Shown in pieces: positions 21,907 to 37,098 of a DNA stretch of 64,000 nt (position 1 is its first letter; each line of letters opens with the position of its first letter). Where the stretch lies: positions 124,001-188,000 of the forward strand of contig JAHHHF010000064.1 of NCBI GenBank assembly GCA_019359495.1, written 5' to 3'. Source of the DNA: Goleter apudmare HA4340-LM2 (GTDB lineage: Bacteria > Cyanobacteriota > Cyanobacteriia > Cyanobacteriales > Nostocaceae). The notes under the pieces were generated by a model. It was not told where the DNA came from and did no database searches. It was given only the letters and a program-made list of their open reading frames with translations. The translations under genes and the position numbers were made by a program.

Positions 21907-22638
21907 CTAACTACTCAAAGCCTTTAAAAAGCGTTGTAAACTTTTAAACATGCTCGGCTTTTTCGTAGGTGCTGCATCTGTTCCTGTTTGGGGCTGTCCC
22001 TTCATCAGGATTAAATCTAACTCATCGCCTGATGGCCTTTTGGGTAACTCGGCAACTTTTTGATACTCGTTGTTGGTTTCTACCCATACTTCCCACAATC
22101 CAGGGTAAGAGCGAAATACAGCCGTTTGGTCATCTACAGGACGTAAGTAGTAACAGGTTTCAATAGTATTAATGAAACGCTGGCGAGTTTGTCTAGCTGC
22201 GTACCCAATACCGACAACTCCAGTATCTTCTAAACGGGGATTTAACAGAATTGCAGGGCGATCGCCTATTTCTACACACAGCTTTTCTAGCTGGGATACT
22301 TCTACGGAAGTGGGGGCAATAAATAAGAAAATTTGATCTTCTGGCTGAATTTTATCGCCTACCGCATCAGCTCTGCCTGTACCAATATCCAAAATTTTAA
22401 ATGGTACATCCCAATCGCGGCGGGCTAAGGCCGCAGCACCAGCATCAGCGAAGAAAACCTTCAAGCGGGATTCATATTCTGTCAACAGGGGTAAAAATTG
22501 TTCTGCAACTGGCATGGGTTTGAGTTCTGGGAATAGGAACTCAACTTGTAAGCGAGTACAGCCATCTGCTAGGGCAGCTTGGGTGGCTGCGCGAGATTGA
22601 GCGATCGCTTCTTCAAGACTCTTAGGCAGTTCAGGCAT
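21907..22638 (-). CDS. DUF1995 family protein (LPA3-like)
   Basis: 243 residues. The opening MPELPKSLEEAIAQSRAATQAALADG and the central FIAPTSVEVSQLEKL / RPAILLNPRLEDTGVVGIG patterns match DUF1995, a cyanobacterial/plant family. Its plant member LPA3 assists photosystem II assembly. No signal peptide, so cytosolic or stromal-side. The last 30 residues are basic and variable. The bacterial function is unproven. Confidence 0.8.
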   Translation of the reverse strand: MPELPKSLEEAIAQSRAATQAALADGCTRLQVEFLFPELKPMPVAEQFLPLLTEYESRLKVFFADAGAAALARRDWDVPFKILDIGTGRADAVGDKIQPEDQIFLFIAPTSVEVSQLEKLCVEIGDRPAILLNPRLEDTGVVGIGYAARQTRQRFINTIETCYYLRPVDDQTAVFRSYPGLWEVWVETNNEYQKVAELPKRPSGDELDLILMKGQPQTGTDAAPTKKPSMFKSLQRFLKALSS

Positions 22639-22807: not shown

Positions 22808-23392
22808 ATGCAGTTACAAACACAAAAACGCTATTACACCCCTGAAGAATATTTAGAACTTGAAGAGAAGGCAGAATTTAAAAGCGAATACCGCGATGGA
22901 GAAATAGTCCCGATGACAGGTGGCACTACCAATCATAATAAAATTTCCTTGAATTTAGCTGCATCATTAAAGGTAGCTTTGAGAGGCAGACAATATGACG
23001 TTTATATAGCTGATGTCCGGTTGTGGATACCTCGTTACCGTCAACATACCTATCCAGATGTGATGGTAATTGCACAAGAACCTGTCTATACGGGAACTAA
23101 TACGACTACTGTGATGAATCCCTCATTAATTGCGGAAGTTTTATCTCAATCAACTAAAAATTACGACCAAGGAGACAAGTTCTTATATTATCGCTCCATC
23201 CCGGAATTTAAAGAATATGTTTTAATTGACCAATACCAACATCATGTAATGCAGTATGTAAAAACTGCTGAAGGTCAATGGTTATTTACCGAAATTGAAG
23301 GCGAATCTGCAATTTTATCGCTGCACACAATTGATTTTCAAATTCAACTAAGTGACCTTTATGAGCAAGTAAATTTTGCTGAAAGTGATTAG
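22808..23392 (+). CDS. Uma2-family endonuclease-like protein
   Basis: 194 residues. YTPEEYLELEEKAEFKSEYRDGEIVPMTGGT at the N-terminus and YPDVMVIAQEP...LIAEVLSQSTKNYDQGDKFLYYRSIP match Uma2 (DUF820), a PD-(D/E)XK nuclease-fold family greatly expanded in cyanobacteria. The Asp and Glu-x-Leu active-site-like positions are present. Role unknown; these genes are often linked to mobile DNA. The stop codon TAG (23390-23392) is the first three bases of a MITE, so the C-terminus may have been set by that insertion. Confidence 0.82.
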   Translation: MQLQTQKRYYTPEEYLELEEKAEFKSEYRDGEIVPMTGGTTNHNKISLNLAASLKVALRGRQYDVYIADVRLWIPRYRQHTYPDVMVIAQEPVYTGTNTTTVMNPSLIAEVLSQSTKNYDQGDKFLYYRSIPEFKEYVLIDQYQHHVMQYVKTAEGQWLFTEIEGESAILSLHTIDFQIQLSDLYEQVNFAESD

Positions 23393-23521
23393 GACTTACG
23401 CACAGGTAACGGAAAAATGTAGACGCGGTAGACGAGCATAGCGAGGCTTCTCGGAGAGTACGGTTTGCCGCAGGCTAACGCAGAGGACGCAGAGTTTGAG
23501 ATATTTTTTGCGTAAGTCCTA
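23390..23521. repeat. MITE family B, copy 1
   Basis: A 132-bp element with perfect 13-bp inverted ends TAGGACTTACGCA (23390-23402) and TGCGTAAGTCCTA (23509-23521). Interior contains GCGGTAGACGAGCATAGCG-type repetitive sequence. Non-coding. Other copies at 36920-37098 and 58229-58356. Confidence 0.85.
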
Positions 23522-23540: not shown

Positions 23541-23700
23541 GGCGAATTGTCAAACGCCCCATCCACAAGGGGATGGGGCTTGTAAATGACCGAGAGAATC
23601 GGTCGAAACATCCGGCATATTGACTGATGCCTGCTCTTCTGTCCCTTGGGTAGAAGAGAGAATGTAGTCATCCCTGACATTCTTGGCAGCATTGAGATCC
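23541..23700 (-). ncRNA. putative TnpB guide (omega) RNA, 3' part of tnpB and right end
   Basis: TnpB guide RNAs normally cover the 3' end of tnpB and the element's right end, the guide being the flank. Here two hairpins occur on the minus strand at that place: GACCGATTCTCTCGGTC (23604-23588) and a 9-bp stem GCCCCATCC / GGATGGGGC (23579-23556). Boundaries are estimates. The flank read as guide would run leftwards into the MITE ending at 23521. Confidence 0.45.
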
Positions 23701-24788
23701 GCGTGTGTCCGATGTCCACAATTTTTGCAATGGAATCTAGACTTGTGGCGGTTTGTCCGTCGAACGTGCTTACAAATATTACACTTCTGAGACGTGTAAC
23801 GAGGATCTTGGTGAACTACTCGTTTACCCAATGCTTCTGCTTTGTAAGTTAGGAATTGTTCTTGTTGGTAAAAAGCCCAACTACCCAACCATTTATTCAT
23901 TTTCTTGCCCCGTCGCTGTGTGCGAATACTGGACAAGTCCTCTAGTACAAAAACCGCTATTCCTGGTTGGTTGGCTAACTTTTTACTTACACAATGGTTC
24001 GTATCCCGCATGAACCGCTTCTCACGTCCAGACATCGCTTTTAAGCGACGTTTGGCACTACGAGTGCCTTTTTGTTGGAGTTGACGACGATTGTATAAGT
24101 AACGTCTTTGTACTTTTCTTATCTTAGAAGAACTGAAGAATTGACCGTCACTTGTAACAGCTTGGTGATATAAGCCTCTGTCAATTCCTTGAATTTGTCC
24201 TTCTCTCTTACAAAGTTCCGATCCAAGGAAGCCTTGGCTCGGACTTTGCGCTATTTGTTGCGGATCTTCTGTCTCGAAAACCAATCTCACCCAGAATTGC
24301 TGAGTGTTTTTGGTATAAGTGACAGTTGCTCCACAAAAGTCCCAAGTTTCAAAAACTTCTCTGAAATATTCAGGCACATCAAGAATCAAGGTGACTCGTT
24401 TACCAATACAACTAAGAGTTAATTGCTTCCCTCTTAGCGTCATTGTGCGCTTATCGTACCTTAATCCTGATGTTGGTTTTTTCTTGGGAATACTTTTAAA
24501 TTGTCTTGGAAAGTTCAGATCGCCAGAAGCCGACGCTCTGACTTTCCGCTTTGTGGCTTTGACTGCCTCAAGCGCATTATCTCGAACTGTCTGTAACAAG
24601 GCAGAAGGCACACTTGGAAACTCAACCCTTAACAGGTGATACAGTTCCTTGTGTGCCTTATTTTTGTTGTAGGTACTGTTAGCAATAGCCCAGTCAACGT
24701 GTGCATTAAATATCTCTGCACACTGATTCATTAGAGGCAAAAATCTTTCTGATGGTAAATTAACTGGGATGCTAACAGTACGTTTCAT
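23550..24788 (-). CDS. tnpB: TnpB, RNA-guided nuclease of an IS200/IS605-type element
   Basis: 412 residues from ATG 24788 (MKRTVSIPVNLP). RuvC-like parts are intact: Asp in GIDRGLYHQAVTSDG, Glu in FVLEDLSSIRTQ, Asp in THADLNAAKN. The C-terminal zinc ribbon has Cys pairs in QKCNICKHV and FHCKNCGHRT. It looks full length and functional. The ATG shares one base with the preceding gene's stop (TAATG), so it is translationally coupled to two unrelated small genes. Its C-terminus (PSPCGWGV) runs through the right-end hairpin, as is typical. The tnpA at 25707 appears to belong to a separate element. Confidence 0.92.
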   Translation of the reverse strand: MKRTVSIPVNLPSERFLPLMNQCAEIFNAHVDWAIANSTYNKNKAHKELYHLLRVEFPSVPSALLQTVRDNALEAVKATKRKVRASASGDLNFPRQFKSIPKKKPTSGLRYDKRTMTLRGKQLTLSCIGKRVTLILDVPEYFREVFETWDFCGATVTYTKNTQQFWVRLVFETEDPQQIAQSPSQGFLGSELCKREGQIQGIDRGLYHQAVTSDGQFFSSSKIRKVQRRYLYNRRQLQQKGTRSAKRRLKAMSGREKRFMRDTNHCVSKKLANQPGIAVFVLEDLSSIRTQRRGKKMNKWLGSWAFYQQEQFLTYKAEALGKRVVHQDPRYTSQKCNICKHVRRTNRHKSRFHCKNCGHRTHADLNAAKNVRDDYILSSTQGTEEQASVNMPDVSTDSLGHLQAPSPCGWGV

Positions 24789-25168
24789 TATGCTGTTTGA
24801 AGCTCCGTTGCTACATTCTCTTTCATACAATCTTTGATAACCTGCTCTTGATTGACAGGCTCAAAATATCTACGACGATACCGAAGAACAATTAGTGAAG
24901 GAAGTTTTGTATTTGCTGGTTCATAAGCTTCGTAGTGGCTAAAATCCCAAATATGATCTTCCTGCCCTTCGTACCCTACAGTATAAGTAGTTGCAAGTTC
25001 ATAATGAGCAATGTGCCTTTCAGTTTTCAAGTATTTTTCTATTGATTGCTGAGTGCTTAACGGACAAATTAAGATAACTCCATTATGCAAATTTGCTTGA
25101 GAATCAGTATCAATACATGGCATTTGTACAAAATGCGTACCAGGATTTTGTAAGAATTGTTGTTTCAT
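24788..25168 (-). CDS. unrecognised 126-residue protein coupled to tnpB
   Basis: MKQQFLQNPGTHFVQMPC..; soluble, rich in aromatic residues and His/Tyr (HIWDFSHYEAYEP, LRYRRRYFEPV). No signal peptide or known motif. The stop TAA overlaps the tnpB ATG by one base, and the ATG lies one base after the upstream gene's stop, so all three are probably translated from one message. The last 15-20 residues may derive from the left end of the TnpB element. Host gene or cargo: undecided. Confidence 0.6.
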   Translation of the reverse strand: MKQQFLQNPGTHFVQMPCIDTDSQANLHNGVILICPLSTQQSIEKYLKTERHIAHYELATTYTVGYEGQEDHIWDFSHYEAYEPANTKLPSLIVLRYRRRYFEPVNQEQVIKDCMKENVATELQTA

Positions 25169-25169
25169 T

Positions 25170-25589
25170 TTATTTGCCTACACATTCAAAAGTTCCGTTT
25201 GCCCTTCTGCGAACACGAACAAACTCAAGCCCATGCAAACTTACGTCTCTTTTACATCTTTCTTCAGCTTGAGCTAAAGTAAGTGATGATCCATAAACAT
25301 TGACTATTACCTCTTTTTCAAACTCCTCTGGATCTTCTAAATATTCGGATCTGAATATGTTGCCTTGTGCGTCTGCTGCAACTCTCTGTCCGTCCGAAAT
25401 TTGCCAAATATAGTAGATACCACCACCTATTAACGCTGTTCCGACTAAAATACACCCCACTCCCGCAGTTCCAGCGCACAAAGCCACAGGAGCTAAGATT
25501 GCTGGGTTGGCTTGTGATGGTTTAACACTAGCCGAAAGACATAATGACGTAAGAGCAACGCCTACTGTTATTTGCTGTAGAATTTTCAT
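25170..25589 (-). CDS. unrecognised exported protein, first gene of tnpB operon
   Basis: 139 residues. Signal peptide MKILQQITVGVALTSLCLSAS...SQA (cleavage near residue 27). A Gly/Ala/Cys-rich hydrophobic stretch (APVALCAGTAGVGCILVGTALIGGG) may be a membrane span. The C-terminal domain is charged, with two cysteines (ERCKRDVS, FECVGK) that could form a disulfide. No family recognised. First of three tightly packed leftward genes ending in tnpB. Confidence 0.6.
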   Translation of the reverse strand: MKILQQITVGVALTSLCLSASVKPSQANPAILAPVALCAGTAGVGCILVGTALIGGGIYYIWQISDGQRVAADAQGNIFRSEYLEDPEEFEKEVIVNVYGSSLTLAQAEERCKRDVSLHGLEFVRVRRRANGTFECVGK

Positions 25590-25617
25590 GTTGACCTACC
25601 AACACTAGGTTGACCAA

Positions 25618-25651
25618 GCCCAGGATGTTAACGGCATCGCTGGGCATTTTT
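25618..25651 (+). terminator. hairpin with T-run ahead of tnpA
   Basis: GCCCAG (25618-25623) and CTGGGC (25640-25645) with a 16-base loop, followed by ATTTTT. On the plus strand it would stop transcripts entering from the left before they reach tnpA. It may double as the left-end hairpin of the IS. Confidence 0.6.
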
Positions 25652-25706
25652 GTGTAAAATTACTATATCACATATTTTATATGTTTTATTGATATACACT
25701 AAAAAT

Positions 25707-26141
25707 ATGAAAATACTATCAAGTTCATATGCTAAACATTGCCTGGGATACCACATCATTTTTTGTCCCAAATACCGTCATCAAATCCTTGAAGGTGCGG
25801 TGGAAGTAGAATTAAAACGAATCATCGGGGAAACTTGTAAAACCTATGGGTGGATACTTCACGCATTGGAAATAATGCCTGACCACATTCATGTATTCGT
25901 ACAGGCAGATCACACAACTGCACCAGTAGAAATCGCCAAAACCATGAAATCAATTTCTGCTGTGCATATATTTAATACATTCAAAGACCTCAAAAAACGT
26001 CGCTTTTGGGGTTCAGGGATGTGGAGTGACGGTACGTTTTACTCATCTGTTGGTGGAGCAAGGGAAGAAGCAGTGAAGCGGTATATTGAGACTCAGAAAC
26101 AACGGGGTGACGCGCTTACCCAAAAACATAATGCAAAATAA
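25707..26141 (+). CDS. tnpA: IS200/IS605-family transposase TnpA (HUH, Y1)
   Basis: 144 residues from ATG 25707 (MKILSSSYAKHCLGYHIIFC). HUH motif in MPDHIHVFV; the catalytic Tyr is probably in AVKRYIETQKQ near the C-terminus. The length is normal for the family, so it is probably active. It transposes a single strand by cutting at hairpin ends. Longer upstream starts are not supported. It lies in the opposite orientation to tnpB with two unrelated genes between, so it is best treated as its own element. Confidence 0.92.
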   Translation: MKILSSSYAKHCLGYHIIFCPKYRHQILEGAVEVELKRIIGETCKTYGWILHALEIMPDHIHVFVQADHTTAPVEIAKTMKSISAVHIFNTFKDLKKRRFWGSGMWSDGTFYSSVGGAREEAVKRYIETQKQRGDALTQKHNAK

Positions 26142-26263
26142 GGGGCATCGTTAGCGAAGCGGTAGCGATAGCGAAGCGGTAGCGAGTCTTCGAGCGTCGG
26201 AACGAGCGTCACCCCCTTATTTTGCCGTGCTTACATCCCCTTGTGGGTGGGGATGTAAGCACG
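26133..26263. repeat. IS200 right end with repeat-filled stem
   Basis: GCAAAATAAGGGG (26133-26145, overlapping the tnpA stop) and CCCCTTATTTTGC (26213-26225) are perfect 13-bp inverted repeats. The roughly 67 bases between are made of GCGAAGCGGTAGCG-like units, as if a short repeat had been inserted in a hairpin loop. The 15-bp stem 26226-26263 follows directly. Confidence 0.65.
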
Positions 26264-26289
26264 ATCAATAAAAATGTAATATTCAGGAT

Positions 26290-36919: not shown

Positions 36920-37098
36920 TAGGACTTACGCATTGACAGAAAAAACTAAATATGGGGTATGGATTTCAGGCATTAAACCTTGATTTTTCCATACTTTTTA
37001 GGCGATCGCTATTTATCAATAGATGATTGAGTACAGCCTGAAACAATGTATTTTCGTTAATGCACAAGATGATAAATTTGTACAGTGCGTAAGTCCTA
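36920..37098. repeat. MITE family B, copy 2
   Basis: 179 bp, perfect 13-bp ends TAGGACTTACGCA (36920-36932) and TGCGTAAGTCCTA (37086-37098), one base pair beyond which CTG/CAG extends the match. The interior differs from copy 1. It sits between two convergent genes. Confidence 0.85.

What the first reader, a model, noticed from the sequence alone, without database searches (positions are those of the whole stretch)
23550..25589. tnpB translationally coupled to two unrecognised genes
An exported 139-residue protein and a 126-residue protein precede tnpB with a 1-base gap and a TAATG overlap. TnpB elements normally have their own left end before tnpB, so there is no room for one. Either the insertion trimmed a host gene, or the nuclease has been taken into a host or cargo operon, as in some domesticated TnpBs.
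Basis: partly seen in the sequence, partly recalled or inferred. Interest (0 to 1): 0.6.

Follow-up and report, generated by a model that had tools for sequence, protein, structure and literature searches.

The report
IS605-type transposon carrying swappable gene pair
The two small unknown genes in front of the RNA-guided nuclease gene tnpB are not host genes: they ride inside a complete cyanobacterial "jumping gene", in a slot where sister elements carry other small genes, and one half of the pair seems to be swapped as a cassette, much as polymorphic toxin genes swap their tips.

Summary
In detail: a 139-aa putatively exported protein (g1) and a 126-aa protein (g2) precede tnpB with a 1-base gap and a TAATG overlap. 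The left end lies beyond tnpA and the right end lies directly behind tnpB, so g1 and g2 sit inside an IS605-type element (about 23549-26267). In the same IS clade the tnpA-tnpB gap holds g1-g2 relatives, unrelated small genes, remnants, or nothing. The genome's second copy has a different pair before a 92%-identical tnpB. The g1-g2 family also sits in a second IS605 clade, coupled there to tnpA, and stands alone on Nostoc plasmids and chromosomes. The genes are under purifying selection. Against the nearest type-B element (L028), identity is 92% up to about g1 residue 89, undetectable across the g1 C-terminus plus g2, and resumes at the tnpB ATG: a cassette swap. I read it as a transporter-IS-like variant of IS200/IS605 with an exchangeable passenger operon that feeds translation into tnpB. 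Passenger function is unknown; an exported-toxin/immunity-like pair is the most interesting reading (about 0.2), untested.

The parts
23549..26267 (-). whole IS605-type element (left end to right end), about 2.7 kb
   Evidence: right-end boundary GTTGAC shared by sister copies, flanks diverge directly after it; left-end TGATCG hairpin preceded by T-rich TTTAT-like flank; left boundary certain to about 5 bases
26215..26267 (-). left end (LE) subterminal hairpin
   Evidence: DNA fold -18.9 kcal/mol, z -7.8; conserved in sister copies
25707..26141 (+). tnpA, Y1/HUH transposase of the IS200/IS605 family, 144 aa
   Evidence: Pfam Y1_Tnp E 1.2e-35; NCBIfam transpos_IS200 E 3.1e-37
25646..25706 (-). 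divergent promoter-like region (conserved AACATATAAA box) upstream of g1-g2-tnpB
   Evidence: aligned in elements with and without passengers; passengers lie between it and tnpB
25170..25589 (-). passenger gene g1, 139 aa: predicted signal peptide plus hydrophobic segment, then C-terminal domain with two conserved Cys
   Evidence: no Pfam/NCBIfam/PHROG/PADLOC family; CTD model beta-alpha-beta-beta, pLDDT about 80
24788..25168 (-). passenger gene g2, 126 aa, unknown family; one-base gap to g1, TAATG overlap with tnpB
   Evidence: homologues beside g1 homologues; no known family
24788..25325 (-). exchangeable segment: g1 C-terminus (from about residue 89) plus g2
   Evidence: 92% identity to L028 up to here, none across the segment, resumes at tnpB ATG
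23550..24788 (-). tnpB, RNA-guided nuclease, 412 aa, with two in-frame 16-aa insertions relative to sister copies
   Evidence: NF040570 guided_TnpB; alignment to sister copies
23549..23600 (-). right end (RE) hairpin overlapping the 3' end of tnpB; expected source of the guide RNA
   Evidence: DNA fold -11.1 kcal/mol, z -3.2; guide-RNA role by homology (PMC8612924)

Best explanation
A complete IS605-type (divergent tnpA/tnpB, single-strand 'peel and paste') element has acquired a two-gene passenger module in the slot between the tnpB promoter and tnpB. g1 and g2 are transcribed from the element's own leftward promoter and run by translational coupling (1-base gap, then TAATG) into tnpB, so that tnpB expression depends on the passengers being translated. 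The slot is a hotspot: passengers are gained, lost and replaced by recombination between elements, and the g1 C-terminus plus g2 can move as one cassette while the signal/membrane N-terminus of g1 stays. Shown by comparison: location inside the element, recurrence, exchange, selection on the proteins. Inferred: co-transcription, coupling in the cell, and export of g1. As a working guess for the proteins, g1 is exported or membrane-anchored with a diversifying C-terminal domain and g2 is its cognate partner (an immunity- or chaperone-like role), giving the element or its host a selectable trait.
For: tnpA next to g1. Ends defined by sister copies in different flanks and by hairpins. The core gene upstream (homologue of 21907-22638) and the cysteine desulfurase gene downstream lie close together without the element in several relatives, for example G158 and G162. 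The second copy in the genome has another pair, 60 + 142 aa, before a 92%-identical tnpB. Relatives of the same module sit in Fortiea (L015), Nostoc CHAB 5715 (L018), G111 (L028) and, decayed, G148 (L070). Other small ORFs or no ORF occupy the slot in further clade members, while a promoter-like box stays. The same g1-g2 family lies between tnpA and tnpB of a second IS605 clade, on the other strand and upstream of tnpA (L113, L115), whose sisters with a recognisable tnpA have gaps of about 35-90 bp. dN/dS is 0.05 for g2 type B and 0.06-0.39 for g1. There is a mosaic breakpoint at g1 residue ~89 and at the tnpB ATG. WIN and L009 tnpB share two derived insertions yet carry different passengers.
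Against: No empty site at nucleotide resolution in a close strain: relatives' intergenic regions do not align. No transcript or protein data. In G111 g1 is frameshifted while g2 and tnpB stay open, so g1 is not strictly required. Translational coupling rests on spacing alone. The global correlation between the g1 CTD and g2 is not positive (Mantel r -0.10, p 0.78), so 'cognate partner' is weak beyond close pairs. Structure models of g2 are poor (pLDDT 51).
Confidence: 0.85

Rival explanations
1. g1 and g2 are selected as helpers or regulators of TnpB itself (for example dosage control or an anti-TnpB), so the operon is one functional nuclease system.
For: tight coupling to tnpB in many copies; different small acidic proteins sit in the same position
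Against: sister elements lack any passenger; the g1-g2 family is coupled to tnpA in another clade and stands alone on plasmids; passengers in the slot are mutually unrelated
Confidence: 0.1
2. The slot merely traps arbitrary small host genes with no benefit to the element; the present passengers are transient hitch-hikers.
For: unrelated small ORFs, remnants and empty slots are all seen; decayed copies are common (L070, L016, L022)
Against: the same g1-g2 family was captured by two IS605 clades and is under strong purifying selection
Confidence: 0.3
3. One reading: tnpB inserted into or was taken over by a host operon (domestication).
For: translational coupling
Against: intact tnpA, both ends, second copy with other passengers, RuvC motifs present, unrelated flanks
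Confidence: 0.03

Closest known systems
IS200/IS605 family, IS605/IS608-type (divergent tnpA and tnpB), e.g. IS608; ISDra2 for TnpB function
   Same: Y1/HUH TnpA, guided TnpB, subterminal LE and RE hairpins, RE at the 3' end of tnpB
   Different: two extra genes between promoter and tnpB; the family is described as carrying only genes for transposition and its regulation (PMC8612924)
transporter IS (tIS)
   Same: IS derivative carrying passenger genes inside its ends (definition in PMC9330008)
   Different: here a single-strand transposing IS605 element, with passengers translationally coupled to tnpB and swapped as cassettes; no IS605 example was found in the papers searched
Polymorphic toxin-immunity loci (PMC3482391)
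   Same: conserved exported N-terminus, variable C-terminus, small gene directly downstream exchanged together with it
   Different: very short proteins, C-termini share one small Cys-pair domain, no known toxin or immunity domain, located in an IS
TldR and other domesticated TnpBs (PMC13418256)
   Same: TnpB-like gene in operon-like contact with another gene
   Different: TnpB keeps its RuvC motifs and its tnpA and ends

Membership tests
IS200/IS605 family | Y1/HUH TnpA transposase | tested here: met
   Y1_Tnp E 1.2e-35, transpos_IS200 E 3.1e-37
IS200/IS605 family | TnpB with RuvC and zinc-finger motifs | tested here: met
   NF040570 178.8 bits; GIDRG, LEDLSS, ADLNAAKN and four-Cys motif visible in the alignment
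IS200/IS605 family | subterminal LE and RE hairpins, no terminal inverted repeats | tested here: met
IS200/IS605 family | insertion 3' of a fixed short target, no target duplication | tested here: inconclusive
   TTTAT-like flank at most left ends; no nucleotide-exact empty site
transporter IS | passenger genes not needed for transposition lie between the IS ends | tested here: met
   g1-g2 between tnpA and tnpB, absent from sister copies
transporter IS | passengers move together with the IS | tested here: inconclusive
   same module type at unrelated sites in several genomes, but no movement observed
polymorphic toxin-immunity system | conserved N-terminus with exchanged C-terminus plus downstream gene | tested here: met
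   WIN against L028 breakpoints; NTD similarity 0.5-0.77 with CTD and g2 near zero in many pairs
polymorphic toxin-immunity system | recognisable toxin or immunity domain | tested here: not met
   no hits in Pfam, NCBIfam, PHROGs, PADLOC or PDB folds
polymorphic toxin-immunity system | C-terminal domain and downstream gene co-vary | tested here: inconclusive
   holds for close pairs, no global correlation
domesticated TnpB (TldR-like) | loss of RuvC residues and of transposition parts | tested here: not met

The most novel reading that the evidence does not exclude
The g1-g2 module is a miniature exported toxin (or membrane-acting effector) with its immunity protein that evolves by cassette exchange, and IS605 elements carry it in one operon with their RNA-guided nuclease, so that TnpB (retention by cleaving the empty site) and g1-g2 (punishing loss or non-carrier cells) jointly keep the element.
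Probability: 0.18. Interest if true: 0.8.

Novelty: new variant of a known kind. Interest (0 to 1): 0.55.

Why it matters
IS200/IS605 elements are described as the simplest mobile elements, with only transposition genes. Here one cyanobacterial lineage uses the gap before tnpB as an exchangeable expression slot, so that RNA-guided nuclease production is probably tied to translation of a passenger, and the same small gene family was taken up by two IS605 clades. That gives a concrete case of cargo carriage by single-strand transposons and a defined, undescribed and fast-diversifying two-gene family to test.

Tried and rejected
Domesticated TnpB or host operon: rejected (tnpA, ends, copies). A third gene upstream of g1: none, tnpA follows. 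g2 and the 142-aa gene of the second copy as homologues: no support (hhalign probability 0.1%). The 60-aa gene of the second copy as a homologue of the g1 C-terminus: supported (95%, E 2e-8). Viral contigs: no relatives of g1 or of the 142-aa gene family. The profile queries A1 and A2 were too divergent to scan. Plasmid collection: no close tnpB, but free-standing g1-g2 pairs. Rfam: no hit for a guide RNA. AlphaFold models were weak and fold searches gave nothing significant. Exact empty site: not resolvable with the relatives held. In the dN/dS script the WIN tnpA was read out of frame; those three rows are void and not used.

Full report
What is there. The finding's three ORFs are exactly as described. 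tnpB (23550-24788, minus strand) is a full-length guided TnpB whose last codons run through the right-end hairpin. The feature that changes the reading is tnpA, a Y1/HUH IS200-type transposase at 25707-26141 on the plus strand, head to head with g1. This is the divergent IS605/IS608 layout, in which the left end lies beyond tnpA. Comparing sister copies in different genomes, all but the fragmentary L023 of those shown share a right end closing with TTGAC, after which the flanks diverge, and nearly all share a left-end hairpin starting near TTTAT-TGATCG. In the window these are 23549 and about 26267. The left hairpin is strong (z -7.8), the right one moderate (z -3.2). In several relatives the core gene upstream and the cysteine desulfurase gene downstream lie a few hundred bases apart with no element between them (for example G158 and G162), but the exact empty site cannot be read because the intergenic DNA is too diverged.

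A variable slot. The genome holds a second copy (contig C17) with tnpB and tnpA at about 92% and 88% protein identity, but with another coupled pair, 60 aa + 142 aa. A genome-contig scan and a scan of 389 genomes of the order gave some 29 tnpB-bearing elements of the clade. Their tnpA-tnpB gaps hold: the window-type module (type A; a decayed relative in G148, L070); a related module with another g2 (type B; Fortiea L015, Nostoc CHAB 5715 L018, G111 L028); the 60+142 pair (type C; remnants in L016 and L022); single small ORFs of 62-75 aa, of which two end in TAATG over the tnpB start (L054, L056); remnants; or nothing (gaps of 30-180 bp). A promoter-like stretch with a conserved AACATATAAA box follows the tnpA start in passenger-bearing and passenger-free elements alike, so the passengers were put between the tnpB promoter and tnpB. 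I infer that the end-to-start overlap keeps tnpB translated.

Exchange. Window against G111 (L028): 92% nucleotide identity through tnpA, the spacer and g1 up to residue ~89, no detectable similarity across the rest of g1 and all of g2, then the match resumes at the tnpB ATG. The window and second-copy tnpBs share two in-frame 16-residue insertions absent from the four sister copies aligned with them, yet carry different passengers. Passengers therefore turn over within the element lineage.

Where else the family lives. A search with all passenger proteins and the contexts of the hits show g1-g2 between tnpA and tnpB of a second, distant IS605 clade (G385 L113, G331 L115). There the pair lies on the opposite strand and leads into tnpA (the L113 transposase scores as transpos_IS200); clade sisters in which tnpA was recognised have gaps of only about 35-90 bp. 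The pair also stands alone: chromosome of G385 (L114), G398 (L117), a prophage-like region (L118), and plasmids of Nostoc HK-01, Nostoc PCC 7524 and Fischerella NIES-4106. The 60+142 pair is common as a free two-gene unit in one genus of another family. So this is a mobile small-gene family that IS605 elements picked up at least twice.

What the genes may do. g1 has a conserved N-terminus, by eye a signal peptide and a Gly-rich hydrophobic stretch, and a variable C-terminal domain with two invariant cysteines, homologous to the 60-aa protein (hhalign 95%, E 2e-8) and modelled as beta-alpha-beta-beta (pLDDT ~80 in that part). g2 proteins are very diverse, sharing little more than one tryptophan. 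dN/dS among type-B copies is 0.05 for g2 and 0.06-0.16 for g1, so the proteins are maintained. Synonymous divergence of g1 and g2 exceeds that of tnpB for the same pair of elements (L015/L028: g1 1.06 and g2 saturated, tnpB 0.36), which agrees with separate histories. No library names either protein and no fold matches. The pattern of constant exported N-terminus, changing C-terminus and a changing gene directly behind is what polymorphic toxin loci show (PMC3482391), but no toxin domain is recognisable and CTD-g2 covariation is not general. It is a lead, not a classification.

Verdict. It is a new variant of a known kind: an IS605-type element acting as a transporter IS with an exchangeable, tnpB-coupled passenger operon. 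IS200/IS605 elements are described as holding only transposition genes (PMC8612924; transporter IS concept in PMC9330008). I found no description of passengers in this family in the papers searched, but the library is partial.

Noticed in passing
L009 (contig C17) 300-345 and L078 (contig C29) 110-140: tnpB of the second copy is split by an insertion: the two halves on different contigs share ACCCAAGGGAC (11 bp, likely target duplication) and are flanked by CTACGGTGTACACACAAG in inverted orientation.
   Followed up: partly
window 24195-24250 and about 24505-24560: tnpB carries two in-frame 16-codon insertions relative to sister copies, one clearly palindromic; the second copy has a third in-frame insertion. 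Repeats that insert into reading frames without breaking them.
   Followed up: partly
window 23390-23521, 36920-37098, 58229: TAGGACTTACGCA...TGCGTAAGTCCTA inverted-end (MITE-like) elements, 5 arms in the window against 0.07 expected; one such repeat also sits inside the tnpA-tnpB gap of L063.
   Followed up: no
L113 4229-4447 (+): In the second IS605 clade a 72-aa XRE-type helix-turn-helix gene lies directly before tnpB and divergent from g1-g2-tnpA.
   Followed up: no
L029 3606-3836 (-) and L125 3546-3761 (-): Similar small proteins (KRxDPNY...), possibly ribbon-helix-helix regulators, lie directly before g1 in one genome and before the 60-aa gene in another, linking the two module types.
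   Followed up: no
L119 3077-4804: A distant g1-like gene lies upstream of a REP-associated-type Y1 transposase gene, perhaps a third association with a Y1 transposase.
   Followed up: no
L120, L126, L128: The 60+142-type genes sit beside a PIN-domain toxin-antitoxin-like pair in three genomes of one genus.
   Followed up: no
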